NCBI GenBank assembly: GCA_002897695.1
Contig: BDTG01000025.1
Location: 1 to 19,406, forward strand
DNA: 19,406 nt
Reading direction: 5' to 3'
From: a bacterium BMS3Abin14
GTDB lineage: Bacteria > BMS3Abin14
Shown: positions 2,392 through 18,376 of the stretch, piece by piece
Layout of the letters: each line of letters starts with the position of its first letter
Numbering within the stretch: the stretch's first letter is position 1
Notes under the pieces: generated by a model
Told to the model about the DNA's origin: nothing
The model's input: the letters and a program-made list of their open reading frames with translations, nothing else
Databases searched by the model: none
Translations under genes and position numbers: made by a program

Positions 2392-3282
2392 ATGAAGCCG
2401 AAAATCGCTGTCTGGGCCGCCCAGATACGAGCGCCGTTCCTTCTTCTGGCTGTTGCCCTTGTCCTGATCGGGGGCGCCCTGGCCCACGAATACGGACAGT
2501 TCGGCTTTTTGCTCTTTTTCCTATGCCTGGCAGGTACGGTCCTGGCTCACGCTTCCGTCAATCTTTTCAACGAACTTTCCGATTTCCGGACCGGCATCGA
2601 TTCCATTACCAGGAGAACGCCGTTCTCGGGAGGGAGCGGGAACCTGCAGGCGGGTCTTACATCGGAATGGGGCGTCAGGATCGCCGCGTGGTGCACCCTG
2701 GCTTTGGCCGGCGCGATCGGGCTGTACCTGGCGTGGCGGTCAGGCTGGATTCTGCTGGTGTTTATCCTGGTGGGGGGGCTGACGACAGTGTTTTACACAA
2801 GCCGCCTGGCCAAATTTGCCATGGGGGAACTGTTCGCGGGCATGTGTCTTGGGAGCATGGTGGTCGTCGGCACTTTCATCGCCATGACCGGGGAGCTGAA
2901 CACTACGGTACTGCTCGCCTCCGTGCCGCCCGGCATTCTTACATCACTGCTGCTTTTCCTGAATGAATTCCCGGACCTGCAAGCGGACAGTTCCGGAGGG
3001 CGGCGTCACCTTCTTATCGTCCTGGGGAGGTCGGTCTCGGCGCGGGTCTACACGGTTTCTCTGGGCGTCTGCTACGGGTTCATCGTCTGGGGTGTCGCCT
3101 CGGGCGTCTTTCCGGTTCCAATGCTTATCACCCTCCTGACCCTCCCCCTCGCCTTCAAGGCCGCTGTCATCACCCTGAAGCACCATGACGATTTCGAGAA
3201 GATGATCGCGGCACAGGGGGCCAACGTGGGGCTGGTCCTGGGAATAGACTTTCTCATGGCCATAGCCTACTTCATTCACTGA
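2392..3282 (+). CDS. UbiA-family prenyltransferase (MenA-like)
   Basis: 296 residues, highly hydrophobic with about 8 or 9 membrane helices, the normal length for MenA (1,4-dihydroxy-2-naphthoate polyprenyltransferase, a menaquinone step). The first Asp-rich motif reads NELSDFRTGID (60-70), followed by the RRTPFSGGSGNLQ loop. The second, NEFPDLQAD, precedes GGRRHLLIVLG, the equivalent of the GKRTL..LLG stretch of MenA. These motifs bind Mg-prenyl-diphosphate. The family transfers a polyprenyl chain to an aromatic acceptor in the inner membrane. The acceptor cannot be read from sequence, so MenA is likely but not certain. The RBS is GGGGGAAG (about 2382-2389). The gene precedes mobA by 55 bp. 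Menaquinone supply fits the neighbouring respiratory enzyme but could be coincidence. Confidence 0.82.
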   Translation: MKPKIAVWAAQIRAPFLLLAVALVLIGGALAHEYGQFGFLLFFLCLAGTVLAHASVNLFNELSDFRTGIDSITRRTPFSGGSGNLQAGLTSEWGVRIAAWCTLALAGAIGLYLAWRSGWILLVFILVGGLTTVFYTSRLAKFAMGELFAGMCLGSMVVVGTFIAMTGELNTTVLLASVPPGILTSLLLFLNEFPDLQADSSGGRRHLLIVLGRSVSARVYTVSLGVCYGFIVWGVASGVFPVPMLITLLTLPLAFKAAVITLKHHDDFEKMIAAQGANVGLVLGIDFLMAIAYFIH

Positions 3283-3323
3283 CAGGTCCAAAACAAGATT
3301 CTTATATCCGCCCTGATTTGTTG

Positions 3324-3337
3324 TATAATATTTTTCC
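3324..3337 (+). promoter_or_regulatory. Consensus -10 element directly before mobA; possible leaderless start
   Basis: A perfect TATAAT (3324-3329) ends 8 bp before the mobA ATG (3338). Transcription would begin at about 3336-3338, giving an mRNA with almost no leader. No Shine-Dalgarno sequence is visible in the 20 bp before the ATG. The -35 region is weak (TTCTTA or CTTATA near 3299-3306). Confidence 0.4.
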
Positions 3338-3949
3338 ATGGAAAACATTACGGGAGTTATCCTTGCCGGCGGGCGGAGTGAAAGAATGGGAGTGGACAAA
3401 GCTACGCTGCGCATACAGGGTGAGACACTGTTCGAGCGCCAGCTCAATGCTTTCCGCGAGGTCTTTCCAAGAGTTCTGATCGCCGGGGACCGACCAGACC
3501 TGGCCAGTCCGGAGGTCCCCTGCGTTCCCGACCTGTATCCCGGCAGCGCTTTGGGAGGCCTGTACACCGGGTTATCGACTGCCGGGACCCCATACATCTT
3601 CGCGGCACCCTGCGATATGCCCCTACCCGATACCGACATGATCCGCTTCATCGTGTCCTGTCGAACGAGTGCCTACGACGCTGTGGTCCCCAGGACCAGT
3701 GCAGGCATGGAGCCCCTCTTCGCCGTATATTCCAGGAAGTGCCTCCCGGTCATGAAGAGCCTCCTTGAGGAGGGAAACTACCGGGTTCTGGACATATATG
3801 AGAGGGTGAACGTCCTGTTTATTGAAGAGGATTCTCTACCTCCCGGTTGGGAGAGGGCTCTGTTGAATATTAATACACGTGAGAATTTGGAACATGTTAT
3901 GCTCGATATTGAATTTAAAACCCGGCATGACCGCACATTCAATGATTGA
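3338..3949 (+). CDS. mobA: Molybdenum cofactor guanylyltransferase MobA
   Basis: 203 residues, normal for MobA. The N-terminal nucleotide-binding loop is intact: GVILAGGRSERMGVDKATL (6-24), containing the LAGGxSxRMGxDK signature, followed by the Mg-binding CDMP motif near residue 92 and the C-terminal NINTRENL. MobA transfers GMP from GTP to Mo-molybdopterin, forming the MGD and bis-MGD cofactor of DMSO-reductase-family enzymes such as the one encoded at 9352-12540. The start must be 3338, because any later start removes the loop, although no ribosome binding site is present. A second, degenerate MobA-like domain is encoded at 5391. It shares the VVPR.S.G.EPL.AVYSR block with this gene, so the two are paralogues. 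MoeA follows after a short repeat insertion. Confidence 0.93.
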   Translation: MENITGVILAGGRSERMGVDKATLRIQGETLFERQLNAFREVFPRVLIAGDRPDLASPEVPCVPDLYPGSALGGLYTGLSTAGTPYIFAAPCDMPLPDTDMIRFIVSCRTSAYDAVVPRTSAGMEPLFAVYSRKCLPVMKSLLEEGNYRVLDIYERVNVLFIEEDSLPPGWERALLNINTRENLEHVMLDIEFKTRHDRTFND

Positions 3950-4000
3950 TGACTTCGCAAAAAGTCATGAATGGATTTTTACGACCCTATCAATGATTGA
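3939..4000. repeat. Short insertion flanked by 11-bp direct repeats between mobA and moeA
   Basis: TCAATGATTGA occurs at 3939-3949, including the mobA stop, and again at 3990-4000. Between them are 40 bp with GACTT..AAGTC inverted arms around CGCAAA (3951-3966) and GGATTTTTACGACC. A related CTCGCAAAAAGT string occurs at 13395-13406. It looks like a short mobile repeat with a duplicated target. Confidence 0.45.
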
Positions 4001-4029
4001 CAACTATGGATTCTGCTGAAGGAGACATG

Positions 4030-5259
4030 ATGTCCGAAAATAGTATGTTGACATTCGATGAAGCTCTTGCCGTCATTCACCGCAGCGTATCTACCTCCGA
4101 ACCGGTCCATGTAGCACTCGAGAAGGCGCTCGGAACCGTCGCGGCGGAAGGTATCCACTCCAGCGTGGACCTGCCACCGGCAGACAGTTCGGCAATGGAC
4201 GGCTACGCTTTCGCGTATATGGGTCAGAGGAAGGGTGACAATTTGCCGGTGACCGGCGTTTCCATGGCGGGCGAACCATTCGGAGGCGTCGTGCAGAAAG
4301 ATCAGGCCGTGAAGATCATGACAGGCGGGATCGTCCCGCAGGGCTGCGACGCGGTGATCCCTTTCGAGGAGGTTGAAGAATCGCGTGATTCTATCTGTCT
4401 CAAGGCCGATGCCGCTTTTGGAACCAATATCCGATTCCGTGGTGAGGAGGTCGGTAAGGGTGAAATTCTGGTACAGGCTGGAACCCTTCTCGACTCCCGC
4501 GAAATCGGCATGGTGGCGGCCGGTGCTGTCCCGCAAGTGAAGGTTATACAGAGGCCCCGCGTGGCCCTCCTCACTACCGGGACGGAACTGACGTCCCTGG
4601 GAGAACCGCTGAGTCCAGGGCGGATTGTCAATTCCAACCATTACTTTCTTTCAGCCCGTCTACGGGAACTTGGCTGCGATGTTCTGCCGCTGGGAACCGT
4701 TCCGGACGACATGAAGCGGCTTAAGAGTGCGTTCATCGAGGGCCTTGAGGCCGACGCGATTATCAGCACCGGTGGTGTGTCGGTCGGGGATCGGGATCTT
4801 GTCAAAAATTCCCTGTCAGAGCTTGGATTCGACCTCGGTTTCTGGAGGGTTCTCATGCGTCCTGGAAAACCGGTTTTGTTCGGGATGCTGGAGGGCAAGC
4901 TGGTCTTCGGACTTCCCGGCAATCCCGCCGCCTGCGGGGCGGCCTTTGAGCTGTTTGTGGTCCCCGCTCTGAGACGGCTGGCCGGCATGGAAGCTGGAAA
5001 GGAGGCCGTCATCAGGGTTGCCGTCACCCAACCGGTAAGGTCGAGGAGGGGCAGGGATTCCTTCATCTGGGGGGTGCTGAAGAGGCGGGAAAACTCTTTT
5101 CTGTTCACGCCCAAACAAAGGCAGGGATCGGGTCAGCACAGGAGTATGGCTGGTGCCAACGCTTTGCTCCGTGTGCCCCCGGATCTGGGGGATCTTTCCG
5201 GGGGTTGGGAAGGAGATGCTTTCCCGTTGCGGCAACGCCTTTTGGGCGGCGTTTTATGA
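4030..5259 (+). CDS. moeA: Molybdopterin molybdenumtransferase MoeA
   Basis: 409 residues from ATG 4030. This start is preferred over ATG 3997 because AAGGAG (4019-4024) sits 5 bp upstream and homology begins with LTFDEAL. MoeA inserts molybdate into adenylylated molybdopterin to give Mo-MPT, the substrate of MobA. Visible family features are PADSSAMDGYAF early in the protein, the KIMTGGIVPQGCDAVIPFEEVE block, TTGTEL and PGRIVNSN in the MoCF-binding domain, STGGVSVGDRDL, LMRPGKP and LPGNPAACGAAFELF, then a short beta C-terminal domain. The length is normal for bacterial MoeA. It lies in the + strand molybdenum cluster after mobA, and its presumed partner MogA is not in the window. Confidence 0.95.
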   Translation: MSENSMLTFDEALAVIHRSVSTSEPVHVALEKALGTVAAEGIHSSVDLPPADSSAMDGYAFAYMGQRKGDNLPVTGVSMAGEPFGGVVQKDQAVKIMTGGIVPQGCDAVIPFEEVEESRDSICLKADAAFGTNIRFRGEEVGKGEILVQAGTLLDSREIGMVAAGAVPQVKVIQRPRVALLTTGTELTSLGEPLSPGRIVNSNHYFLSARLRELGCDVLPLGTVPDDMKRLKSAFIEGLEADAIISTGGVSVGDRDLVKNSLSELGFDLGFWRVLMRPGKPVLFGMLEGKLVFGLPGNPAACGAAFELFVVPALRRLAGMEAGKEAVIRVAVTQPVRSRRGRDSFIWGVLKRRENSFLFTPKQRQGSGQHRSMAGANALLRVPPDLGDLSGGWEGDAFPLRQRLLGGVL

Positions 5260-5341
5260 CATCATTTACGTAAGGGAGGATCCGTCTCCAGTGGTCCGAT
5301 TCTCGAAGCGCAACGTATGCGTACTTCTCATGTCCGTCGTT

Positions 5342-5370
5342 TTGACAGGATGGGATGTGGACCTCAGAAT
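5342..5370 (+). promoter_or_regulatory. Possible internal promoter before the mobA-like/mobB fusion
   Basis: TTGACA (5342-5347), a 17-bp spacer and CAGAAT (5365-5370, weak) lie in the 131-bp gap between moeA and the fusion gene. It could make the downstream mobAB-modABC genes partly independent of the upstream ones. The rest of the gap holds nothing recognisable. Confidence 0.35.
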
Positions 5371-5390
5371 GATATGGAGAACATGACCGG

Positions 5391-6497
5391 ATGAGAGATA
5401 AAAGAACAGCGATCATCCTTGCCGATGGCGAGGAGAAGCGATGGAGTTGGGAACTGAGAGGCGAACCGATCGTACAGCGTGCACATCGTACACTGGAAGG
5501 TTTTTTCGACCGTATTCTGGTTGTAGCCCCGGATCCTGCTCCCTTTGAGGAAATGGGATTCGAGACCCTGGCGGACGACTACCCGGAATCGGCACGAATC
5601 GGGGCTATTGCCACCGGCCTGAAATATATCGACAGCCCTTATGCTTTCGTTACGGGCGCGGACATGCCATTGCTCAATCCCAGGATCATCCGGTTCCTCT
5701 ACAGCCAGAGAAAAGGATGGGATGTGGTGGTCCCCAGGAGCAGCAAAGGATTCGAGCCATTATGTGCCGTCTACAGCCGGTCGTGTGTGGCTGTTATGGA
5801 AGAACGGATCAGCAACGGCAGTTTCAAGATCCTGGATCTTATCGCTGACGTCCGAACCCGGATCGTCAATGGAGAGGACCTCCGGGTACTGGACCCTGCT
5901 GAGCTTACCTTTCGGAACGTCAATACGAAAACTGACCTGGATGAATGTCGCCTTCACCTGGCGCGCGTGAGGAGTTACGGTCCTGCCGCGGTTTCCGTCG
6001 TGGCCAAATCGGGGACTGGAAAAACCACGATGCTGGAGAAGATCATCAGCGAGTTGGTAAGCAGGGGGTATCGAGTGGGTACCGTAAAACACGATGCCCA
6101 CCATTTTGACATTGACCACGAAGGCAAGGATTCCTGGCGGCTCACCCGGGCTGGGGGGTCGCCAATGGTCATCTCATCTCCTGAAAAGATGGCCATGGTC
6201 AGGTCTCACCTGCTGGGTGAGATGTCCGTTGAAGAGATTATCTTTCGTTTCATGACCGATGTGGACATCGTTTTGTCGGAAGGCTACAAATCGGGGAACT
6301 TGCCCAAGATCGAGATCCATCGGAGTGAGCGGAGCCCTGAACTTCTTTGTATGTCGAGGGATGGAACCATCCTTGATCACAGACTCATTGCTATCGCAAG
6401 CGACGAGGAACTCCCTTCCCCGGTGCCCATTTTCCCTCTGGATCATCCCGGTCCGGTCTGTGACTTCCTCGAGGAACAGTTCCTTGGTGGAGCGTAG
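5391..6497 (+). CDS. Fusion: degenerate MobA-like domain plus MobB GTP-binding domain
   Basis: 368 residues in two parts. Residues 1-195 follow the MobA fold: GADMP (89-93), VVPRSSKGFEPLCAVYSR and NVNTKTDL are recognisable. However, the N-terminal GTP loop that should read LAGGxSxRMGxDK is replaced by ILADGEEKRWSWELRG (9-24), so catalysis is doubtful. Residues 196-368 are MobB, with a P-loop AKSGTGKT (205-212, the first Gly of the usual motif is Ala), TVKHDAHHFDID and DSWRLTRAGG. MobB is a GTP-binding partner that helps MobA in MGD synthesis. MobA-MobB fusions are known; here the intact MobA is separate at 3338, so this half may be a scaffold. The RBS is weak: GGAG (5376-5379) is 11 bp from the ATG, and a three-codon frame (5383-5394) overlaps the start. 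modA follows after 3 bp. Confidence 0.85.
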   Translation: MRDKRTAIILADGEEKRWSWELRGEPIVQRAHRTLEGFFDRILVVAPDPAPFEEMGFETLADDYPESARIGAIATGLKYIDSPYAFVTGADMPLLNPRIIRFLYSQRKGWDVVVPRSSKGFEPLCAVYSRSCVAVMEERISNGSFKILDLIADVRTRIVNGEDLRVLDPAELTFRNVNTKTDLDECRLHLARVRSYGPAAVSVVAKSGTGKTTMLEKIISELVSRGYRVGTVKHDAHHFDIDHEGKDSWRLTRAGGSPMVISSPEKMAMVRSHLLGEMSVEEIIFRFMTDVDIVLSEGYKSGNLPKIEIHRSERSPELLCMSRDGTILDHRLIAIASDEELPSPVPIFPLDHPGPVCDFLEEQFLGGA

Positions 6498-6500
6498 GCT

Positions 6501-7379
6501 GTGTCTCTTTTCCAGAGGAAACCAGGCTCACTGGTAAAATTTTCCTGTTGGGTGCTTTTCGCCACAGTTTTCTTTCTCATCATCGGTCTCAGCCCTATTC
6601 CTTCCCACAGTGGTCCTGTTATCGAGGTGTTTGCGGGATCCGTCTCCATGATGGTTCTTGAAGAAGCTGTCTCAAGTTTCGAAAAATCTACCGGCAGCAG
6701 GGTTGACATGATATTCAGTGGGTCGGGAAGCGCACTCGCCCAGATGCGGCTCGCCCGGCACGGGGACCTTTACATTCCCGCATCCCAGCAGTTCATGGAT
6801 ATTGCTCTGGAAAAAGGCGTGGTAGATCGGTCTTCAGTGGTTCGTCTCGCCTATCTGGTTCCAGCTATAGGTGTGGCCGCGGGAAACCCAAAGGGAATCC
6901 ATGGACTTGATGACCTCCTTCGCTCCGATGTCAGATTTGTTATGGCGCGACCGGATACTGTAAGTATTGGACTATTCGCTGCGGAAATATTTGATAAAAA
7001 CGGTCTGGGCAAAGAGGCCAGATCCAGGGTCAGCGGCTTTACTGAATCTTTCGCCCAGGAGGTTCAGTTGCTCATCCTCGGGACCGCGGATGCTATCATT
7101 GGCTGGTCCGTTCTCGGTAATTGGGATCCGGACAAACTCGAAGTGATCCCAATACAGCCGTCCAGCGTTCCGCGGATCGCTTACATTTCAGGTGCGGTTT
7201 CAGTATATTCAAAGAACCCGGTTCTGGCTCGGGGCTTTCTCAATTATTTGGCCGGCGAGAAGGGAAAAGCTATTTTCGAATCACATGGCTATCCGACGGA
7301 TGTGAATGATATTCGCCACATGGTCACACCTGCCGTTACCGTAGGTGGTCGATACGAACTTCTGGATCGGTGGAGATAA
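6501..7379 (+). CDS. modA: Molybdate (or tungstate) ABC transporter substrate-binding protein
   Basis: 292 residues from GTG 6501, with GGAG (6489-6492) upstream and only 3 bp after the previous stop. A signal peptide is evident: basic start, hydrophobic core about 15-32, then SHSGP. The mature part follows ModA: a VFAGSVS start, FSGSGSALAQMRLARHGDLYIPAS, an interdomain DDLLR region and the C-terminal FLNYLAGEKGKAIFESHGY. ModA-type proteins capture oxyanions in the periplasm and pass them to ModB. Molybdate is the likely ligand given moeA, mobA and mobB alongside, but tungstate cannot be excluded by sequence. The stop overlaps the modB start by one base (TAATG), indicating translational coupling. 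Confidence 0.88.
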   Translation: MSLFQRKPGSLVKFSCWVLFATVFFLIIGLSPIPSHSGPVIEVFAGSVSMMVLEEAVSSFEKSTGSRVDMIFSGSGSALAQMRLARHGDLYIPASQQFMDIALEKGVVDRSSVVRLAYLVPAIGVAAGNPKGIHGLDDLLRSDVRFVMARPDTVSIGLFAAEIFDKNGLGKEARSRVSGFTESFAQEVQLLILGTADAIIGWSVLGNWDPDKLEVIPIQPSSVPRIAYISGAVSVYSKNPVLARGFLNYLAGEKGKAIFESHGYPTDVNDIRHMVTPAVTVGGRYELLDRWR

Positions 7380-8167
7380 TGTCAGGGTGGCGCAATTGGG
7401 GATTCTATACGGCTATCGTATGTGCCTTGGCTCTCTCCCTCGGGCTGATCTTTGCCATCTTGTTCTCTCAGTTGGGTTACAGCGGGATCGGGCAGTCCCT
7501 GAACTCCTTTCTGGACCCTGGAATAAGACACGCGATACTATTGAGCCTGTTAACCGCCACGGGTTCCGCCATTCTTGCATTGCTTGTGGGGATACCTGCG
7601 GCATACGGCCTGGCGCGGTACCGGTTTCCCGGTTCTCTCATCGTTGATGTCCTGCTTGATCTGCCCATTGTCCTCTCCCCGGTGGCGGTGGGGCTATCCA
7701 TGCTCCTGTTCTTCCGGTCCGGGATGGGACAGTGGATTGAAAGCCATTTGATCCGTTTTGTTTTCGAGATCCCGGGGATCCTCCTCTCCCAGTTTATCGT
7801 GGCTCTGGCCCTGACCATCCGGGTTCTTAAAGCGGTGTTCCAGAACATCGACGAAAGATACGAACAGGTGGCTTGTTTCCTCGGGTGCACGCCGTGGCTG
7901 GCCTTCCGGAAGGTGACCTTTCCTCTCGCAGGCAAAGGGATCATGGCGGTGTTTATCCTGGCCTGGGCCAGATCCATTGGTGAATTCGGTGCGACCGTGA
8001 CCCTGGCCGGCGCTATACCGCGGAAAACGGAAACGATCCCCGTAGCGATTTACCTGCGCATGGCCCGTGTGGATATCTCCGGGGCTGTTTCCCTCATGAT
8101 CGTCCTTTCCTTTATCAGTCTTCTCGTCCTTCTCGGTGTCAGGATTCTGGCAGGGAGACAGAGATGA
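7379..8167 (+). CDS. modB: Molybdate ABC transporter permease
   Basis: 262 residues from ATG 7379. This start is favoured over GTG 7370 because GGTGGAG (7369-7375) lies immediately upstream and the ATG overlaps the modA stop. The protein has about six membrane helices. The ABC-permease EAA-type loop is visible as EQVACFLGCTPWLAFRKVTFPLAGKG, read here as EQVACFLG followed by FRKVTFPL, which contacts the ATPase. ARSIGEFGATVTLAG, typical of ModB/CysT-type permeases, follows. It forms the inner-membrane channel for molybdate. The stop overlaps the modC start by 4 bp (ATGA). Confidence 0.93.
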   Translation: MSGWRNWGFYTAIVCALALSLGLIFAILFSQLGYSGIGQSLNSFLDPGIRHAILLSLLTATGSAILALLVGIPAAYGLARYRFPGSLIVDVLLDLPIVLSPVAVGLSMLLFFRSGMGQWIESHLIRFVFEIPGILLSQFIVALALTIRVLKAVFQNIDERYEQVACFLGCTPWLAFRKVTFPLAGKGIMAVFILAWARSIGEFGATVTLAGAIPRKTETIPVAIYLRMARVDISGAVSLMIVLSFISLLVLLGVRILAGRQR

Positions 8168-9258
8168 TCGAGGCCACCGGTCTCAGCGTTACATTTGGAA
8201 AGTTCCTACTGCGGGAGTTGAATCTAACTATTCATCCAGGAGAGAGTTTTTTTATCCTCGGGCCCTCGGGGGCCGGAAAATCACTTCTTCTGGAGACGCT
8301 TCTGGGAATTCGCCGACCTGACGCCGGCAAGGTCTTTCTGGAAGGACGGGACATCACTGAGCTTCCTCCAGCTGAGCGTCAGGTGGCCTATGTTCCCCAG
8401 GACCTTGCCCTTTTCCCCCACCTTTCCGTCCGAGAGAACATTCTGTTCGGCCTGAAGGTTCAGAAAAGTTCCTCAGAGGATATGTCGGAGCGTCTGAACC
8501 GCATGGTTGATCTTCTGGATCTGCACGATATCATTCCCAGGAAGAGCGTTCTTAGCCTCTCAGGCGGTGAGAAGCAAAGGGTGGCGTTGGCCAGGGCTCT
8601 CATCCTCAATCCCAAGGTCCTCTTCATGGATGAGCCGTTCAAAGCCTTGGATATTTCCCTGAGACGAAGGCTGCTTACGGAGGTCAGGCACCTCCAGAGG
8701 GAACTCGGGTTGACTCTGGTGCACGTGACGCATGATCCGGAGGAAGGATTTCTTATGGCGGACCGGATGGTCCTCTTAATGAACGGCCGCATCGAGCAGA
8801 TGGGAACTCCCAATGAGTTGTACTACAAACCCGGCAACCTCCGGGTGGCCACGTTCCTGATGCTGCAGAACATCTTTCCGGGACGGATGGGAAAGAAGAC
8901 GGGCGATGGTTACCAGGAGATCAGTTTGGAGGACGAGGATCTAATGCTGCTTTCCACGCCTTCATCAAGGTTTCCCGAAGGGAGCCCCGTGCTGGTTGGC
9001 GCAAGGCCGGAAGAGGTGATCATCGTCGAACCGGGCCGCCCGCCTGACACAGAACATCAGAAGAACCTTCTTCTCGCAGAAGTAACAGGATGGGTTGACC
9101 TCGGACATTACCGGTCGGTGAACCTGAGAGTTGGTCAGTTGAAACTGGAGAGCTGGCTGAGTATCCGGGAGGCCCGGGAGTGTCCCCTTAACGTGGGCAT
9201 GGAAGTCTGGTGCCACATCAGACCCTGGAGCTTCTGCCTCCTCACTCCTGAATCGTAA
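8164..9258 (+). CDS. modC: Molybdate ABC transporter ATP-binding protein
   Basis: 364 residues. The ATPase domain is complete: Walker A GPSGAGKS (33-40), Q-loop VPQD (78-81), signature LSGGEKQR (132-139), Walker B VLFMDE (152-157) and the H-loop His190 in VTHD. The region from about 235 to 364 is a C-terminal regulatory extension as in ModC/CysA proteins (MOP/TOBE-like), ending in CHIRPWSFCLL, and may sense oxyanion. It powers molybdate uptake with ModA and ModB. It starts inside the modB stop codon region (4-bp overlap) and is the last gene of the + strand block. A strong hairpin follows 50 bp later. Confidence 0.93.
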   Translation: MIEATGLSVTFGKFLLRELNLTIHPGESFFILGPSGAGKSLLLETLLGIRRPDAGKVFLEGRDITELPPAERQVAYVPQDLALFPHLSVRENILFGLKVQKSSSEDMSERLNRMVDLLDLHDIIPRKSVLSLSGGEKQRVALARALILNPKVLFMDEPFKALDISLRRRLLTEVRHLQRELGLTLVHVTHDPEEGFLMADRMVLLMNGRIEQMGTPNELYYKPGNLRVATFLMLQNIFPGRMGKKTGDGYQEISLEDEDLMLLSTPSSRFPEGSPVLVGARPEEVIIVEPGRPPDTEHQKNLLLAEVTGWVDLGHYRSVNLRVGQLKLESWLSIREARECPLNVGMEVWCHIRPWSFCLLTPES

Positions 9259-9351: not shown

Positions 9352-12300
9352 TCAGGCGGGTACCACCTTGACCTTGGTGTCATAGAATGACGAGGATCCC
9401 CCGATCGGATCGGTCAGGCACATATCTCCCAGGGCCGGGTCGATACGCATGGCGGCGTTGGGACAGATCCCCTTGCCGCGGCGCTTGTCGCCCTTGACCA
9501 CCTTGCCGTCGACCTTGACGTCGTTGGCACCGTAGGCCCAGTGGCCGCAGGACCAGGAGACCGCCACCACACCGGGGCGGATCCCTTCGATCACCTTGAC
9601 CTTGCCACCGACCGACCGGTCGAGGCCATGGCCGATTTGCCACATGCCGTCCGGGTTACTGGCGGAGACGATATTGGCATGGCCGCCATCACGCAGACCA
9701 AGCTTCCTGGCATCGCGCGAGTTCATCAAAATGTAGTTCTCGGCCAGTTCACGTCCTTGGGACCAGTAGTTGCCGATGGTTCGTGATTGCCCGCCGACGA
9801 TGTCCTTATAGGTGATCAGTGTCATGTCATAGCCGGCATCCTTGACTTCTTTGCCGTGAAAATCGCGGATCGGATCGGCCAGAGCCAATCCGGAGAAGCG
9901 CTTGCCGGTACCGGGGTGTTTGGCCAGGCCCACTTTTTCAACGTAAAGATTGAACGGCCCCTTGTACTGATGATTAACCTTGTTCCCCTTGTAGGCATGC
10001 TCGGCGTCTTCGAAGCGGCCACCGCGATTCAGTACGGTGATGGTGCGCAGGAACATGTCATCACCCAGAATCCTGCGCCAGCGCTGTGGGTCATAAGCGT
10101 AGCCGGAGAGATACTTGCGTGCCTCGGCAAAAATTTGCTGTTCTTTCTCGTCGGCGGGGGGCACCTGGTTATTCGGCTTGTCGCCTTGAGCCAGGTTGGC
10201 GACCATACGGATGAACCAGTCGTCAGCGCGCTCCAACGGCTGATCCTTGCCTAAGCCATCCTTGCCGTGGTTCGGCAGGTCGAGTCGCTCGGCAAGCGCC
10301 AGCAGAACCGCTTCCATCCCCAGCGGCTGCTCGACACCGAAAACCTTGACCTTCTCGGTCATTGCCTGGACCAGCGGCTGACGGACCCTGGAAACGGCAG
10401 TCAGCAGGTCAGGCGTAGGATGAGGCGTACCCCAGCGCTCCCAGATGGCGGTGTCGGGGAAGATGTAATCAGCGTACATGGAGGTTTCGCCGATGACGAT
10501 ATCCGAGGCAAACAACAGCGGGATCTTGTTCAGGTCCTGAAGAACCTCGATGTTCTTGTTCGCTCCCGGAACACTCAGTGCCGGGCTCCCCTTGTGCAGG
10601 AAAAGGGCATCGACAGTGTAGGGATAGTCCATGGCGGCCGAGGGGATGATTTCTTGATAGATGTTGCCGGAGAAGGGATACCAGCAACGTTTGGCCGGGT
10701 AGCCGGCGAACAGGGTCGAATCCTCATACCTGTATTTTTCACGGGTGAGGGGCACGCCGAACGCTTTCGTCTTGTCGGCATAGAGCTTCTTGATGTTATA
10801 GGGACCGTTCTTGCTACCGTCCTCGTGCCAGTGGCCGCCACCAGCCTGCAGACCTCCCTTCCAATCGGCGTTGCCGTTCAACACATTGAGGGTGATGATC
10901 GCCTGGGCGTTGTAGTAGCCGTTGGTGTGCTGAACCGGACCACGATAGAGTTCGGCCACCGCCTGCTTGCCGTAAGAGGAAAAGTCCCTGGCGGCACGAA
11001 CGATTTCAGCCTTGGGCAAACCGCACTCGTCGGCCCACTGGGCCACAGTCTTACCGTGGGCCATTTCGGTGAGCAGGGAGAAGACCGTTTTGACCTTATG
11101 GCCACCGACGGTTCCGACAAAAGTGAGATCGCCGACGACCGGCTTGCCATTTTGGACATCAACAGCAGTGGGCCGGCCACCGACCATGGCAACAAATTCT
11201 TCCTTGCCGCCGACTCCGGCTTCGCCGGCGCGCAACAGAGCGCCAGGACCGTCCTTGTCGATTTTGACCAGATAGGTAGCGTTGCTCCAGGTGGTCTCCT
11301 TGACCGCATTGGCCGCCGTCTTGTTGGCGCAGGTTAGATACTTGGCATCATAACGCTTGTTGTCGATGATCCAGCGGATCACGCCGTAGGCCAGAGCGGC
11401 ATCGGTGCCCGGCTTAAGCGGCAACCACTGCTGAGCCTTGGCCGCGGTCTTGGAGAAACGCGGATCGGCCACGGCGATCTTCAGCGTACCATCGGAGAGC
11501 CCCTGGGTGACCTTGCGTGCCAGGCTGGTCGGCCCGAAGTTGGCCTCGAAGGCCCCGGTGCCGAAGTAGAGGATATATTTCGAATTGTAGATATCGGGTT
11601 TCATGTGGTGCTTGCCGCTGCCCCACTTGCCCTTGTCCCACTTGCGGGTCATCTCGTAGTAGCCGATATGGTGGGACTGCTCGCAGATAGAAGTGTGTTC
11701 GAACCAGTTGATACTGCCGAAGCAATCCATCTGCCAGCGCTTGGAGAACTCCTTGCGGCCATGCTCGATCCGGCCGTTCATGATGACAAATCTATTGTTT
11801 TTCGGACCGAGATCGGGGTGGTTGGGATCGATCAGGGTATCAAGGTACCTGGCGTACTTGGCCTTGAAATCGGCCAGCTTCACCTTCTTCTTGCCGACGG
11901 CAGCGGCGTCCTTGGCCATGGCGGCCGCGACCTTACTGTCGCGCAGTGCATAGGTTTCCTTGAGACCCTTGACGGTACGATTTTTCTCTCCGGCAACATG
12001 CTTAAAAAGCTTGCCGCCGTTGACGATTTCATTAACCGCCTGGTCGAAAGAGACCACCTGCCACTTGTTCTCTCCACGCTTGCCGGCGCGCTTGAGCACC
12101 TTGACAATGCGGTAGGGATCGTACAGTGACTGGATGCCGGCCTGACCTTTGGGACAGAGGTGGCCGTCAACCTTCGCCGCCTCGGCCAGGTTGGTTTTAT
12201 ACGATAGATGCGGGCTCATGGTCATGGCGCTGTAAGGGTTGCCGTCGATTTTGACCAGCACGCCATTGAGGATTTTACCCTTGATACTGCAGGCGGTGTG

Positions 12301-12540
12301 GCACTGTAGGCAAGCTCCGTAAATAATGTTTTCGGCCTTGGCCAATTCATAGGTGTCGTCCGCTGAAAGCGTCCCGGCCTCGGCCTTGGCCACCATACCG
12401 AGCGCCCATTCCATCTGGCTGGCGACCAGCAGCGAACCGCCCAAAAATGCGCCGCACTTCAAAAAACCGCGGCGGTTGACTCCTTTTTCATCGATCACTT
12501 CCGCTTGGGCGGCAATCTGTTCTTTATCCTTCTTTTTCAT
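9352..12540 (-). CDS. TtrA-like molybdopterin oxidoreductase, catalytic subunit (tetrathionate/selenate/arsenate-reductase type)
   Basis: 1062 residues. A twin-arginine signal, NRRGFLKCGAFLGG (22-35), predicts export of the folded protein. The [4Fe-4S] site is Cys77-x2-Cys80-x3-Cys84 and Cys129 (HLCPKG). The probable Mo ligand is Cys286 in EHTSICEQSHH, which aligns by eye with the cysteine of Salmonella TtrA. GKRGENKWQVVSFDQ, LKPGTDAALAYGVIRWI and the late PGVVAVS stretch also follow TtrA, as does the length (TtrA about 1020). A Lys/Ala-rich insertion lies at about 178-235. The family reduces inorganic oxyanions with a bis-MGD cofactor in the periplasm, and the true substrate is unknown. It is translated 12 bp after the TtrB-like gene, with GGAGGG upstream. 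No TtrC anchor gene is present in the window. Confidence 0.85.
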   Translation of the reverse strand: MKKKDKEQIAAQAEVIDEKGVNRRGFLKCGAFLGGSLLVASQMEWALGMVAKAEAGTLSADDTYELAKAENIIYGACLQCHTACSIKGKILNGVLVKIDGNPYSAMTMSPHLSYKTNLAEAAKVDGHLCPKGQAGIQSLYDPYRIVKVLKRAGKRGENKWQVVSFDQAVNEIVNGGKLFKHVAGEKNRTVKGLKETYALRDSKVAAAMAKDAAAVGKKKVKLADFKAKYARYLDTLIDPNHPDLGPKNNRFVIMNGRIEHGRKEFSKRWQMDCFGSINWFEHTSICEQSHHIGYYEMTRKWDKGKWGSGKHHMKPDIYNSKYILYFGTGAFEANFGPTSLARKVTQGLSDGTLKIAVADPRFSKTAAKAQQWLPLKPGTDAALAYGVIRWIIDNKRYDAKYLTCANKTAANAVKETTWSNATYLVKIDKDGPGALLRAGEAGVGGKEEFVAMVGGRPTAVDVQNGKPVVGDLTFVGTVGGHKVKTVFSLLTEMAHGKTVAQWADECGLPKAEIVRAARDFSSYGKQAVAELYRGPVQHTNGYYNAQAIITLNVLNGNADWKGGLQAGGGHWHEDGSKNGPYNIKKLYADKTKAFGVPLTREKYRYEDSTLFAGYPAKRCWYPFSGNIYQEIIPSAAMDYPYTVDALFLHKGSPALSVPGANKNIEVLQDLNKIPLLFASDIVIGETSMYADYIFPDTAIWERWGTPHPTPDLLTAVSRVRQPLVQAMTEKVKVFGVEQPLGMEAVLLALAERLDLPNHGKDGLGKDQPLERADDWFIRMVANLAQGDKPNNQVPPADEKEQQIFAEARKYLSGYAYDPQRWRRILGDDMFLRTITVLNRGGRFEDAEHAYKGNKVNHQYKGPFNLYVEKVGLAKHPGTGKRFSGLALADPIRDFHGKEVKDAGYDMTLITYKDIVGGQSRTIGNYWSQGRELAENYILMNSRDARKLGLRDGGHANIVSASNPDGMWQIGHGLDRSVGGKVKVIEGIRPGVVAVSWSCGHWAYGANDVKVDGKVVKGDKRRGKGICPNAAMRIDPALGDMCLTDPIGGSSSFYDTKVKVVPA

Positions 12541-12552
12541 CGTCGCCCTCCT

Positions 12553-13284
12553 TTATCCGTGGCACTTGGCGCAGCTGTAAGCATCGGCGCCAAGATAACG
12601 GGTTATCGGTTTGGTCCCAAAATCGGCCCCAAAAACATAAAGTCCCTTCTCTTTGGCCATCTGCGCCACCAGGGAGCTGGAGTCGTCCAGATCACCGAAG
12701 TAGTTCGCCTCACCGATACAGGTAGACACACAGGCAGGCAACATCCCGGCTTCGATCCGGTGCAGACAGTAATGGCACTTGCGGTTCTTGCCGATCTTGC
12801 CCTTGCGGCCGGCTTCCTTGCCATATTCAAAGGTATCAGCGTCCTCATAGGCTTCACGTTTTGGGGTGTCTTCGGTGTAGTATTCACCCTTATCGGTAAA
12901 CATCACCCCATAGGGGCAGGCGGCCGTGACTTTCGGATCGCCGGTATTCTTGACATAGTCGATCCGCACCACGCCATCTTTGCCCTTGGTGACCGAGCCA
13001 TCCTTGCAGGCCTTGACACAGGGAGCATTGTCACACTGCATGCAGAGATTCGGCATGAAGTAATGGCGGACATTCGGATACTCGCCGTCTTCTGCATCTT
13101 TAACAAAACGATAGTCGACATCCAGGGGCGTCTTGTTCTCAGCTTTGCAAGCAACAGTACAGCCATGACAGCCAACACACTTGCGGATGTCGACTATCAT
13201 CGCCCAGCGTCTCTGCTCCAGTGGTTTGACCAGTGCGCGCTGGATGTCGGCACGCATCTGTTCTAAAACAGACTGCTCACTCAC
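12553..13284 (-). CDS. TtrB-like iron-sulfur electron-transfer subunit with one defective cluster motif and a C-terminal CxxCH
   Basis: 243 residues from GTG 13284, with an ideal AGGAGGT (13296-13290). Four-cluster ferredoxin of the DmsB/TtrB type: Cys36/39/42/46, Cys81/84/89/93 and Cys170/173/185/189 are complete. The third motif, expected as C-x2-C-x2-C-x3-CPY, reads NTGDPKVTAACPYG: only Cys123 remains, with Asn113, Asp116 and Val119 in the other places. One cluster is therefore probably absent. The protein ends SCAKCHG, a CxxCH haem-c-type motif at 238-242. RRWAMIVDIRKCVGC and CLHRIEAGMLPACVSTC follow TtrB closely. It has no signal peptide of its own, so it is likely exported bound to the Tat-substrate catalytic subunit. 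It is the first gene of a two-gene operon. Confidence 0.87.
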   Translation of the reverse strand: MSEQSVLEQMRADIQRALVKPLEQRRWAMIVDIRKCVGCHGCTVACKAENKTPLDVDYRFVKDAEDGEYPNVRHYFMPNLCMQCDNAPCVKACKDGSVTKGKDGVVRIDYVKNTGDPKVTAACPYGVMFTDKGEYYTEDTPKREAYEDADTFEYGKEAGRKGKIGKNRKCHYCLHRIEAGMLPACVSTCIGEANYFGDLDDSSSLVAQMAKEKGLYVFGADFGTKPITRYLGADAYSCAKCHG

Positions 13285-13451: not shown

Positions 13452-13517
13452 CCTTTTAACGGGGCGTGGTTTATGGTAGAATATGGCAATGAAATCAATG
13501 ATTTGCGAGGAGTTGCC

Positions 13518-13970
13518 ATGTTCTATACCAAGGACCACAAAACCCTCAACATGTTCGATCCTTTCGAACATTTAGGCCCTAAGCGCCGCAAGCTTCTTGA
13601 AAGTTCCTGGGCTCATCTTTTCCGACAGGAGATCCTCCCTGATCTGCCTGTGCATAAGTTGACCGGCATTTACAGCGAACTTCACGGCCGTCCCACCAAG
13701 GAGCTATACGCCATGCTGGGGCTGATGATCATCCAGCAGATGCACGATCTGACCGACGACGAGGCGGCCGACAAGTTTGCCTTCGACATCCAGTGGCAAT
13801 ACGCCTTGAATGTCACCGGCGGGTCGGACGAGGAAGCCTATATCAGTTCCAGGACTCTGTGGAGCATGCGCAATATCCTTACCGAACACAACCTCTATCT
13901 TCCCCTGTTCGAGTCCGTTACCGACAAGCTTGCCAAGTTGTTTAACATAGACACCGGCAAACAGCGCATT
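13518..13970 (+). pseudogene. Truncated IS1182-type (DUF772) transposase, N-terminal third only
   Basis: 151 codons from ATG 13518 (GAGGAG at about 13506-13511) read as a DUF772/IS1182-family transposase start: a KTLNMFDPFEHLGPKRRKLL opening, LHGRPTKELYAMLGLMIIQ and FDIQWQYALNV. Similarity stops abruptly after KQRI at 13970. The open frame runs on to 14378 but the rest is repeat sequence, not transposase. Such transposases are usually about 450-550 residues, so the catalytic region is gone. It marks the border between the ttr-like operon and the accessory region. Confidence 0.75.
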
Positions 13971-14030
13971 CGGAGACATGGAGACACGGAGAGATTATGC
14001 CCGTCATTGCGCCTGTCCACCGACTTGTCA

Positions 14031-14178
14031 CGGCGAAGCTTTAGCGAAGACGGAAGCTTTATGCGAAGGTGGAAACAGCAGAGTCCTGTGCGCGGCAATC
14101 CCGTGCGAAGCCGTGCATGTCATTGCGGCACCCTTAGATCGCCACGGGATCGCTTCCGTCTTCGCCGAGGCTTCGACG
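14031..14178. repeat. Large nested inverted repeat
   Basis: The left arm 14031-14057 and right arm 14152-14178 are complementary at 23 of 27 positions, with a perfect 14-bp core GCGAAGACGGAAGC / GCTTCCGTCTTCGC. Inside, ATCCCGTG (14098-14105) pairs with CACGGGAT (14143-14150). The right arm is continuous with that inner arm, whereas the left is split by about 40 bp. A long cruciform or RNA hairpin is possible. Confidence 0.6.
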
Positions 14179-14378
14179 TTACAGGCCGCAAGGAACACAG
14201 CTCGCTGACATCGCGGCACGTTGGACCCTGGAACGTGGAACATGGAACTACCGCCGGTGTCAGAGACAGGGGAAAAGCTGGTCAAACGTCCAATGCCTGC
14301 CGCGGCGACCTGTCGCGTCGAAGTTCGAAGAACGAAGACGGGTCTGCGGAAAAGGCAATACAAAGGCAAGTAAGTTAG

Positions 14379-14828: not shown

Positions 14829-15350
14829 CTATGTCAGGGCACCGAGTACCACTTTCGTTTTAGTACTTGACAACCAGGCGTCCTGGTATTGAGTTCTAAG
14901 TTGTCTTAAGATCGCTCTTCCAACACCCGCCTCTCGAGCTAAGGCATCCAAGGATGTCCATGAATCCAACCATCCCAATTCACGGGCAGCTATTATTGCC
15001 GCTTTATCCGGTGTTAATACCAGTATGTCCTGCGAAGGTAGGATCTCGTCTGCATAGAGTCGGGCAAGAAGTTGTTGTTCTCCATCGTCCAAAACGTAGC
15101 ACTCAGAATGAGATAGTACGAGTTTGACGATTTCAGCTTGGCTAACCTGATGCACACTAGTAAGCCTTTCTCTCAACTCATTCTCGGACACGTGGATATA
15201 GCCTGGTTTATCTGGGTTGCCGGAAGTAGATTCGCGGACACATTTTTCTACCGTCTCTATGGAAAACGAACCACAGATTGCATTCCAGCAACCCACCCTA
15301 TGAGCTTCAAGAATTACGTTCGTGTCAACGAAGACCCTCTCTCCCGCCAT
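14829..15350 (-). CDS. PIN-like domain protein (putative ribonuclease toxin)
   Basis: 173 residues from ATG 15350. A TTG at 15365 overlapping the previous stop (TTGA) would add five residues; neither has a clear ribosome binding site, so translation is probably coupled to the upstream gene. It starts VFVDTNVILEAHRVG, the first acidic strand of PIN nucleases. Further acidic positions are DDGEQQLLARLYADE and LTPDKAAIIAARELGW, consistent with a PIN active site. PIN proteins are Mg-dependent RNases, often toxins. Its position directly behind an XRE-ImmA/IrrE gene suggests a regulated toxin whose partner binds the promoter and perhaps senses or cleaves something. Family placement is moderate; the function is inferred. 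Confidence 0.7.
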   Translation of the reverse strand: MAGERVFVDTNVILEAHRVGCWNAICGSFSIETVEKCVRESTSGNPDKPGYIHVSENELRERLTSVHQVSQAEIVKLVLSHSECYVLDDGEQQLLARLYADEILPSQDILVLTPDKAAIIAARELGWLDSWTSLDALAREAGVGRAILRQLRTQYQDAWLSSTKTKVVLGALT

Positions 15351-15361
15351 TTCATCACGTC

Positions 15362-16483
15362 TCAAAGATCGAATGGGACAACTAAGTTGTATTGCTTGAA
15401 AAGATCGGCTAACCCGCGGAGGTTTGTACCTAATGTCTTTGCGGCTTTCCGGGCAGACAGGTCACCATGGGCTAATGTTTCCTGGAGCATTTCCATGAAG
15501 TTCGAAGAGAAGAGGTTCGGTACGGAATATTCTGAGAGATCCTGCCTTCTTGCCGACAACTCGCAACGCACAAGATCATCTATGATTTTAAGGTTAAAAA
15601 GCCGCCAGGAAAATGCCATTGGAGTTACCCTGAATACTGAGGAGATTTCGTAAAGGTAGTCGATCTCCGTGACCTTATCCAAATCCAGGATCTTTTCCAC
15701 GGACGATTCTGGCATCAGGAGAGCAGACGCAAAGTTGTCAGCCAACTGTTCCATTCGTCTTGCGTTAAGGCCCATTTCGAAGCCTTTTAACTCCCGGTGA
15801 TCAGGGGTCATGGCGTCCCAAGTGAGTATGTGAAAAAGCTCGTGGGCAAGATCCCAGTTCTGGCGACCGGGCGGTTCGTTCCTGTTGATTAAAATTACGG
15901 CCAGATCTCTGAGTGAGCAGGCTGCACCCGAAATCCACTCACCACCGTCACCTTGAATCGTGTCAACATGCAGGACAGGGATATCAAGCCTGTTCTCCAC
16001 GCTTTCCAGAAGCCGCTCACCAGGAAACATTCCGAGTTCCAGTTCCTTAACAAGACTTTCTGCACCTTTCTGGGCATCTTCATAGCTGGAGGTGGCCGAG
16101 ATCCTTAACGAGTACTTCAGCGCACTCGGTTTCCGTCCTTTTGACTCCCGCAACCAGCGGAGTATTCCGATCCACTTACCTGCTTTCAACTCGAAATCCT
16201 CAAGCTCCTCCTGCGAAAGAGCAGAGTCGGCTCTCCAGGAGAACTGGCCCTCACCGGCAATAACGAATGGATCAATGAAAAATTCTATGTCACGATCAAG
16301 AGACGCGCATATCCGCATCAATTCTTCCGGTTTGAGTGCTCTCTTGCCTTTTTCCAGATCTGAAACGGTTTGCCGATCCTTGAAGCCGAGTTCTTCGGCA
16401 AGCCGCTGCTGCGACCAATTTGAAGATTCACGTGCCGCCTTAATCCTGTAGCCGATCATTCTCTGTGAGATATGATCCAACAC
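15362..16483 (-). CDS. XRE-family DNA-binding / ImmA-IrrE metallopeptidase fusion
   Basis: 373 residues from GTG 16483, with GGGAGG 5 bp upstream. An HTH_XRE domain occupies about residues 8-72 (IKAARESSNWSQQRLAEELG ... TVSDLEKGKRALKPEEL). A linker of about 120 residues follows, then a zinc-peptidase core with HELFH (214-218) and the downstream acidic EQLADNFASALLMP (Glu245 as likely third ligand). This is the ImmA/IrrE architecture. Such fusions act as repressors, some cleaving a partner repressor in response to stress, and recur as antitoxin-like partners in toxin-antitoxin and phage-immunity modules. Its promoter carries a matching palindrome (16559-16573). The stop overlaps the next gene's alternative start, indicating an operon with the PIN-like gene. 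Confidence 0.88.
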   Translation of the reverse strand: MLDHISQRMIGYRIKAARESSNWSQQRLAEELGFKDRQTVSDLEKGKRALKPEELMRICASLDRDIEFFIDPFVIAGEGQFSWRADSALSQEELEDFELKAGKWIGILRWLRESKGRKPSALKYSLRISATSSYEDAQKGAESLVKELELGMFPGERLLESVENRLDIPVLHVDTIQGDGGEWISGAACSLRDLAVILINRNEPPGRQNWDLAHELFHILTWDAMTPDHRELKGFEMGLNARRMEQLADNFASALLMPESSVEKILDLDKVTEIDYLYEISSVFRVTPMAFSWRLFNLKIIDDLVRCELSARRQDLSEYSVPNLFSSNFMEMLQETLAHGDLSARKAAKTLGTNLRGLADLFKQYNLVVPFDL

Positions 16484-17950: not shown

Positions 17951-18075
17951 GTGTGACGAACGGGTGGTAAAATAACACGTCCCGACGCCCTACGGCCGCA
18001 ACCCAAAGCCTCTCTTTGCACACCATTAAGTCATGGACGACGCCAGGAATTTCAGTTGAAATTAAGTCAGGCAAC

Positions 18076-18101
18076 AGCTATTCTTACTGGTAAGAATAGC
18101 T
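18076..18101 (+). promoter_or_regulatory. 26-bp palindrome abutting the AbrB-type antitoxin ribosome binding site
   Basis: AGCTATTCTTAC (18076-18087) and GTAAGAATAGCT (18090-18101) are perfect 12-bp arms separated by TG. The second arm touches the ribosome binding site GGGAGG (18102-18107). It is a natural operator for a dimeric AbrB/MazE-type autorepressor, and as RNA it would form a tight stem beside the start of translation. Confidence 0.65.
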
Positions 18102-18112
18102 GGGAGGTCATT

Positions 18113-18376
18113 ATGAAACCTTTTGCAACAACCAAAATGTCATCCAAGGGACAGATCGTAATCCCGGAGTCAATCCGCAAGAACCTGAAACTGGAGGCCG
18201 GCACGCAGTTCGTCGTGATCGCCGAGGATGATGTCGTAATCCTCAAGACGATCACCCCACCGTCCCTGGACGCTTTCGATGAAGTCATTTCCAAGGCTAG
18301 ACGACAGGCCAGGGAGGCCGGACTCACACGGGAATCGGTTAAGGATGCGCTTGCCAAGGTCCGCGAATCCCGATGA
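18113..18376 (+). CDS. AbrB/MazE-type (SpoVT-AbrB) antitoxin
   Basis: 87 residues from ATG 18113, chosen because GGGAGG lies 5 bp upstream; an open frame extends further upstream through the palindrome but without a start signal. The N-terminal swapped-hairpin DNA-binding domain is clear: TKMSSKGQIVIPESIRKNLK, then LEAGTQFVVIAEDDVVIL. The helical C-terminal half (about 50-87), ending ESVKDALAKVRESR, would bind a toxin. Its ATGA end overlaps the start of a PIN-toxin gene, the standard antitoxin-toxin arrangement. That toxin gene is truncated, so the antitoxin is now an orphan. It probably still represses its own promoter through the upstream palindrome. Confidence 0.88.
   Translation: MKPFATTKMSSKGQIVIPESIRKNLKLEAGTQFVVIAEDDVVILKTITPPSLDAFDEVISKARRQAREAGLTRESVKDALAKVRESR

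What the first reader, a model, noticed from the sequence alone, without database searches (positions are those of the whole stretch)
12916..12948. TtrB-like subunit has lost three cysteines of one [4Fe-4S] motif while keeping the exact spacing
Seen: where TtrB/DmsB proteins carry C-x2-C-x2-C-x3-CPY, this protein has N113-x2-D116-x2-V119-x3-C123-PY, without a gap. The other three motifs are complete. Known: in these ferredoxins the last cysteine of a motif usually ligates the partner cluster, so retaining Cys123 while losing the other three fits removal of exactly one cluster and preservation of its partner. Inference: a three-cluster electron wire, perhaps with rerouted electron flow, not a decayed gene.
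Basis: partly seen in the sequence, partly recalled or inferred. Interest (0 to 1): 0.75.

Follow-up and report, generated by a model that had tools for sequence, protein, structure and literature searches.

The report
Fe-S subunit trades cluster for heme
The electron-carrying subunit of an arsenic-linked molybdenum enzyme has lost the binding site of its outermost iron-sulfur cluster and gained a heme-attachment motif at its tail, which suggests the enzyme now exchanges electrons with soluble cytochromes instead of a membrane quinone partner.

Summary
N113-x2-D116-x2-V119-x3-C123 stands exactly where relatives have C-x2-C-x2-C-x3-C. It is neither an error nor decay: a genome outside the window's phylum (L123, 84% identical) has the same N/D/V lesion, and dN/dS is about 0.06.

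Motif III holds FS4, the cluster facing the membrane anchor. Solved relatives have lost the same ligands (FdhB 6sdr/1h0h, BthL 4v4c), so loss of FS4 alone is not new.

Of 103 distinct homologues, 12 have a degenerate motif III plus a terminal CxxCH, 90 have an intact motif III and no CxxCH, one has lost motif III without CxxCH, and none is intact with CxxCH. Nearly all intact proteins sit in B-NrfD-A operons; every degenerate one sits in B-A without NrfD. The exception without CxxCH has a triheme cytochrome c7 gene beside the operon.

Best reading: the anchor was lost, FS4 became dispensable, and a covalent heme c on the Fe-S subunit became the port to periplasmic cytochromes. Neighbouring genes suggest arsenic or antimony chemistry. 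Heme attachment, cluster content and substrate are inferred, not shown.

The parts
12553..13284 (-). Fe-S subunit (B), 243 aa, GTG start; no own signal peptide
   Evidence: Fer4_11 hit; AlphaFold2 model pLDDT 88.5, VIA-align Z 23.5 to PsrB 2vpw_B and 22.2 to ArrB 6cz7_B
13147..13179 (-). motif I, C36-x2-C39-x2-C42-x3-C46, intact
13006..13044 (-). motif II, C81-x2-C84-x4-C89-x3-C93, intact; C93 is the one FS4 ligand left and is expected to be free
   Evidence: the equivalent Cys is lost in L071, L078, L129, L131, BthL and FdhB
12916..12948 (-). motif III (FS4 site), N113-x2-D116-x2-V119-x3-C123: three FS4 ligands lost, partner-cluster Cys kept
12718..12777 (-). motif IV, C170-x2-C173-x11-C185-x3-C189, intact
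12559..12573 (-). C-terminal C238-A-K-C-H242, putative c-type heme attachment motif, ending one residue before the end of the protein
   Evidence: (C238, C241, H242 invariant in the clade)
9352..12540 (-). catalytic molybdopterin subunit (A), 1062 aa, TtrA/ArrA-like
   Evidence: 83% identical to L123 A
12457..12477 (-). twin-arginine export motif NRRGFLK of A; B is presumed to be co-exported
   Evidence: sequence; inference from known CISM enzymes
2392..9258 (+). UbiA-like prenyltransferase followed by molybdenum cofactor and molybdate/tungstate uptake genes (MobA-like, MoeA, MobA-MobB, ModA-like, permease, WtpC-like), convergent with A
   Evidence: a MobA-like ORF also follows the BA operon in L014

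Best explanation
B is the electron-transfer subunit of a periplasmic, anchorless molybdenum enzyme (A + B). Shown: the FS4 motif is gone, FS1-FS3 motifs are intact, a CxxCH ends the protein, no NrfD/TtrC gene adjoins the operon, A carries a Tat motif, and the genome has cytochrome c assembly genes. Inferred: after loss of the quinone-reactive NrfD anchor, FS4, whose job was to pass electrons to that anchor, became dispensable and eroded. A c-type heme, attached in the periplasm to the C-terminal CxxCH of B, became the new port. The chain is then Mo - FS0 - FS1 - FS2 - FS3 - heme c - soluble periplasmic cytochrome(s), in place of FS4 - NrfD - quinone. The likely substrate is an arsenic or antimony oxyanion, direction unknown (about 0.6 within this reading).
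For: Motif III and tail in 103 distinct B homologues: 12 degenerate with CxxCH, 1 degenerate without, 90 intact without, 0 intact with (rows are related, so the Fisher p of 8.5e-15 overstates it). NrfD lies beside B and A in nearly all intact loci and in none of the degenerate ones. Where both CxxCH and NrfD are lacking, a triheme cytochrome c7 gene (PF14522) adjoins the operon in most cases: directly downstream of A in L131, directly upstream of B in L034, L049, L056, L059, L067, L070, L132. Stepwise erosion: three FS4 ligands left (L014, Deferribacterota), one (window, L123, L130), none (L071, L078, L129, L131). The catalytic-subunit tree needs at least three changes of the lesion, one group nested beside intact NrfD operons with support 100/98. 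All 15 genomes searched have Cytochrom_C_asm proteins. FS4 is the last cluster before the exit heme in EbDH (PMC8840923), whose motif III has an altered ligand position, CKGHRHC, consistent with its [3Fe-4S] FS4. Purifying selection on B. ars genes or an ArsP-type permease in 9 of 14 degenerate loci and an AioX/PhnD-like binding protein in 9 of 14.
Against: No heme has been shown. The tail reaches only about 7-17 residues beyond the conserved fold, with modest model confidence (66-76), and no coordinates were available to measure its distance to FS3. No distal axial ligand is known. L131 has the lesion without CxxCH. Thermus loci lack NrfD and an adjacent cytochrome gene yet keep FS4. Only 3 independent pairs exist on the tree, so the association cannot reach significance by sign test. 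The window's own contig carries no ars gene; its Acr3 is elsewhere in the genome.
Confidence: 0.7

Rival explanations
1. Plain three-cluster subunit, as in D. vulgaris FdhB or BthL: FS4 is lost, FS3 is the exit, and the terminal CxxCH binds something else (metal, arsenic, a redox disulfide) or is a trafficking signal.
For: Three-cluster subunits without heme are established by structures with the same ligand losses. FdhB hands electrons to cytochromes without a heme of its own (general knowledge).
Against: C, C and H are all invariant in 12 divergent tails of different length, the signature of heme c, and a cytochrome c7 gene stands in for the tail in L131. A metal or disulfide role would not need the His or the link with FS4 loss.
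Confidence: 0.14
2. The tail religates FS4: C238/C241 (and H242) with C93 rebuild the cluster, so four clusters remain.
For: The window retains C93, and the tail supplies two Cys plus a His; loss of three ligands and gain of three potential ligands coincide.
Against: L071, L078 and L129 have also lost the C93 equivalent, leaving only two Cys plus His for a cluster, while L014 and the Deferribacterota would have five or more candidate ligands; the tail is equally conserved in all.
Confidence: 0.08
3. Sequence error or private decay of one gene.
For: An IS-like transposase fragment lies directly upstream (13473-14378) and no anchor gene is present.
Against: Same lesion in L123 in a genome outside the window's phylum, dN/dS about 0.06 for B and 0.10 for A, intact 1062-aa catalytic subunit.
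Confidence: 0.01
4. The electron-transfer reading is right but the enzyme is a true tetrathionate (or other sulfur/selenium) reductase, not an arsenic or antimony enzyme. This concerns the substrate only and is compatible with the best explanation's electron route.
For: The best curated match of A is TtrA (480 bits). The Deferribacter enzyme was annotated so (PMC6896113).
Against: The TtrA cut-off is 1750 bits. Neighbours are acr3, arsC, arsR, arsA/D, arsP and AioX-like sensor genes. TtrA-clade enzymes acting on arsenate have been proposed (Pyrobaculum; PMC7331816; PMC9751042).
Confidence: 0.3

Closest known systems
FdhB of Desulfovibrio FdhAB (6sdr, 1h0h)
   Same: Periplasmic anchorless Mo/W enzyme; motif II lacks Cys4 and motif III lacks Cys1-3 while keeping Cys4; VIA-align Z 17.4; known to feed cytochrome c (general knowledge)
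   Different: No CxxCH tail known; formate chemistry; the window keeps C93
BthL, pyrogallol transhydroxylase small subunit (4v4c)
   Same: Motif III AKGKKELLDTC and motif II CVAKG: FS4 ligands lost; Z 18.3
   Different: No heme motif known; not part of a respiratory chain; different catalytic partner
TtrB/TtrA, ArrB/ArrA and PsrB families (CISM, four-cluster proteins)
   Same: Overall fold and subunit pairing; a Cys of A aligns with the region of the ArrA active-site Cys
   Different: They have four clusters and mostly an NrfD-type anchor (PMC8076601); curated cut-offs are not met
B-NrfD-A operons of Chloroflexota and others (L016-L093) and haloarchaea (L009-L011)
   Same: Closest homologues of B outside the heme-tailed group, about 41-52% identical, with AioX-like and ars neighbours in part
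   Different: FS4 motif intact, NrfD anchor present, no CxxCH tail
'Tetrathionate reductase without TtrC' of Deferribacter (PMC6896113)
   Same: G422 contig length equals the D. desulfuricans SSM1 chromosome (2,234,389); its B has a degenerate motif III and a CKRCHE tail
   Different: Was reported (for D. autotrophicus) as of uncertain function for want of an anchor; no heme tail is mentioned in the passages read

Membership tests
CISM Fe-S (four-cluster) subunit | Double ferredoxin fold with PsrB/ArrB topology | tested here: met
   Foldseek top hits 6cz7_B, 2vpw_B; VIA-align Z 23.5 and 22.2
CISM Fe-S (four-cluster) subunit | Four complete Cys motifs / four clusters | tested here: not met
   Motif III has one of four Cys
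Three-cluster subunits (FdhB, BthL type) | Loss of FS4 ligands with Cys4 of motif III kept | tested here: met
   window keeps motif II C93, L071/L078/L129 do not
Three-cluster subunits (FdhB, BthL type) | Three clusters by spectroscopy or structure | not testable with these tools
   needs protein
TtrB (NF011569) | Curated score cut-off 416 bits | tested here: not met
   132 bits
ArrB (NF041715) | Curated score cut-off 450 bits | tested here: not met
   136.7 bits
TtrA (NF011567) | Curated score cut-off 1750 bits | tested here: not met
   480 bits
TtrABC-type quinone-linked complex | NrfD-type membrane anchor in the operon | tested here: not met
   None next to B or A in the window or other degenerate loci; a distant separate gene is not excluded
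c-type heme protein | CxxCH motif | tested here: met
   C238-A-K-C-H242, invariant in clade
c-type heme protein | Export to periplasm and cytochrome c assembly in the genome | tested here: met
   Tat motif on A (co-export of B inferred); Cytochrom_C_asm in G000
c-type heme protein | Covalent heme | not testable with these tools
   needs protein
ArrA arsenate reductase (NF041714) | Curated score cut-off 1600 bits | tested here: not met
   123.6 bits for the window A; no gene over the cut-off in 13 genomes with degenerate B, though G429 has one at 1164 bits

The most novel reading that the evidence does not exclude
At least twice, an arsenic/antimony-linked relative of tetrathionate reductase changed from quinone-coupled to cytochrome-c-coupled by dropping its NrfD anchor and FS4 cluster and growing a one-heme C-terminal tail on the Fe-S subunit. 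In Deferribacter desulfuricans, described as arsenate-reducing and with no ArrA over the cut-off, this enzyme is the candidate respiratory arsenate reductase.
Probability: 0.35. Interest if true: 0.8.

Novelty: new variant of a known kind. Interest (0 to 1): 0.62.

Why it matters
It gives a concrete answer to how anchorless 'TtrAB' enzymes could be connected to respiration, a point left open in the Deferribacter literature. It is also a natural series of intermediates in which one cofactor of an electron wire erodes while another type appears on the same subunit. If the arsenic link holds, it adds a candidate arsenic or antimony oxidoreductase in genomes that have no gene over the ArrA cut-off, and a simple sequence mark (terminal CxxCH plus broken motif III) to find it in metagenomes.

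Tried and rejected
Sequence error or decay: rejected by L123 and dN/dS. Tail as FS4 ligand donor: disfavoured by L071/L078/L129. Single origin of tail plus lesion: not rejected (AU p 0.073), only disfavoured. Origin of the tail from the cytochrome c7 gene by fusion: considered, but c7 lies upstream of B, at the wrong end, and no sequence test was made. Viral contigs gave nothing. Phylum-mates of the window genome have no homologue at E 1e-40. Thermus: the polytopic membrane proteins found downstream of A are sulfur-transport proteins (PF04143), not NrfD. Model coordinates were not provided, so no cofactor distances. Genus and species of the window were not determined. The D. desulfuricans genome paper is not in the library. 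Literature searches for a heme-bearing CISM Fe-S subunit found none by title, abstract or the passages read, but the library is partial.

Full report
CHECK. The minus-strand ORF 12553-13284 encodes a 243-residue Fe-S protein; N113, D116, V119 and C123 lie at 12948-12916. Aligned without a gap to homologues, they replace three Cys of motif III and keep the fourth. Motifs I, II and IV are complete. The downstream gene 9352-12540 is a 1062-residue molybdopterin subunit with a Tat motif NRRGFLK, nearest to TtrA but far under that family's cut-off (480 against 1750 bits).

WHAT THE MOTIF IS. In ethylbenzene dehydrogenase electrons run FS0 to FS4 and then to heme b, and FS4 is the [3Fe-4S] cluster (PMC8840923). 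Its motif III reads CKGHRHCVEAC, with the second Cys replaced, so motif III carries FS4, the cluster that faces the exit subunit (inference from these two facts and general knowledge of NarH/DmsB). Loss of these ligands is known: BthL of pyrogallol transhydroxylase has AKGKKELLDTC and CVAKG, and Desulfovibrio FdhB has ELTAKVDGESVRSAC and CKGQAD.

The protein ends ...GADAYSCAKCHG: a CxxCH, the c-type heme attachment signature. A scan of 84,980 genomes with an alignment of the window protein and three haloarchaeal homologues gave 80 loci, and profile searches in further genomes added more. Among 103 distinct proteins, 12 have a degenerate motif III and a terminal CxxCH, one has a degenerate motif III without it, 90 have an intact motif III, and none of these 90 has the tail. 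L123 (genome G284) has the same N/D/V lesion as the window, and purifying selection is strong (B: dN 0.091, dS 1.62).

EROSION SERIES. L014/L124 keep C-x2-C of motif III (CNGCSKPSAC). Five Deferribacterota keep C-x2-C with an extra residue (CxxCGGxAxxAC). Window, L123 and L130 keep none of the three but keep motif II Cys4. L071, L078, L129 and L131 have lost that too, so all four FS4 ligands are gone. Cys4 of motif III, needed by the partner cluster, is kept in every one.

OPERONS. Homologues with intact FS4 lie mostly in B-NrfD-A operons; all degenerate ones lie in B-A operons without NrfD (the NrfD match in L125 belongs to a separate Psr-like operon). NrfD subunits hold the quinone site next to the Fe-S subunit (PMC8076601). 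Intact but anchorless operons of Desulfobulbaceae, Geotalea and L132 have a triheme cytochrome c7 gene directly upstream of B, and the one degenerate protein without CxxCH (L131) has such a gene directly downstream of A. Thermus is the unexplained case: no NrfD, no adjacent cytochrome, FS4 intact.

PHYLOGENY. A tree of 42 catalytic subunits needs three changes of the lesion: the group of window, L123, L014 with the Deferribacterota; the group L129, L130, L071, L078, which is sister (100/98) to NrfD-bearing Bacteroidota, Calditrichota and Planctomycetota; and L131. Holding the 12 heme-tailed rows together is 22 log units worse but not rejected (AU p 0.073). The tails of the two groups also differ in linker length. 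Two origins of the tail are therefore favoured, not proven.

MECHANISM (inferred). With the anchor gone, FS4 loses its customer. A heme c on the flexible C terminus, attached in the periplasm after Tat export with A, takes its place and passes electrons to or from soluble cytochromes. All 15 genomes searched, including the window's, contain cytochrome c assembly proteins. The tail's distance to FS3 could not be measured: the model is good (pLDDT 88.5) but less certain at the tail (66-76), and coordinates are not released.

SUBSTRATE (inferred). Nine of 14 degenerate loci have ars genes or an ArsP-like permease nearby and nine have a phosphonate-binding-type (AioX-like) periplasmic protein, often with a sigma-54 response regulator. 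ArrA is not found over its cut-off in 13 such genomes; one (G429) has a near match of 1164 bits. G422 has the exact chromosome length of Deferribacter desulfuricans SSM1, described in its naming paper's title as arsenate-reducing; its BA operon lies a few kilobases from arsR-arsC-acr3. The related D. autotrophicus enzyme was called a tetrathionate reductase of uncertain function because no TtrC was found (PMC6896113). TtrA-clade arsenate reductases have been proposed for Pyrobaculum (PMC7331816; PMC9751042). In the window's own genome Acr3 and an ArsP-like permease are on another contig, so the arsenic link there rests on homology.

VERDICT. The larger finding is the coupling of FS4 loss, anchor loss and a C-terminal heme motif: a new variant of a known kind.

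Noticed in passing
L015:10877-11278, L125:5122-5481, L126:5512-5883, L127:12583-12954, L128:5241-5609; also L123:14052-14561, L078:8842-9564, L014:11034-11306: Small exported proteins and rhodaneses beside the heme-tailed operons end in an acidic stretch plus aromatic/Met-Gly-Cys or Tyr-Ser-Cys (EERxWGC, EEDFGC, EEDMGC). The small one tested has no Pfam family; role unknown.
   Followed up: partly
L129:363-1121: Motif I reads CVGDHAC: the second Cys is Asp, so a second cluster may also be altered in this member.
   Followed up: no
L071 and L078: Nearly identical operons in bins labelled Gammaproteobacteria and Deltaproteobacteria: recent transfer or mis-binning.
   Followed up: no
window 13473-14378: Transposase-like ORF with DUF772 directly upstream of the B gene, possibly a truncated IS element.
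   Followed up: partly
window 14829-16483: Adjacent minus-strand genes that look by eye like a PIN-type nuclease and an HTH plus ImmA/IrrE-type metallopeptidase pair; not searched.
   Followed up: no
window 18056-18376: Small AbrB-like antitoxin ORF by eye; not searched.
   Followed up: no
L131:1032-1949: The only degenerate B without a heme tail carries an N-terminal signal-like stretch of its own, and 10-heme and 4-heme proteins are encoded nearby.
   Followed up: partly
L032, L033, L039, L045 (Thermus): Anchorless operons that keep FS4 and have no adjacent cytochrome gene; their electron partner is unexplained.
   Followed up: partly
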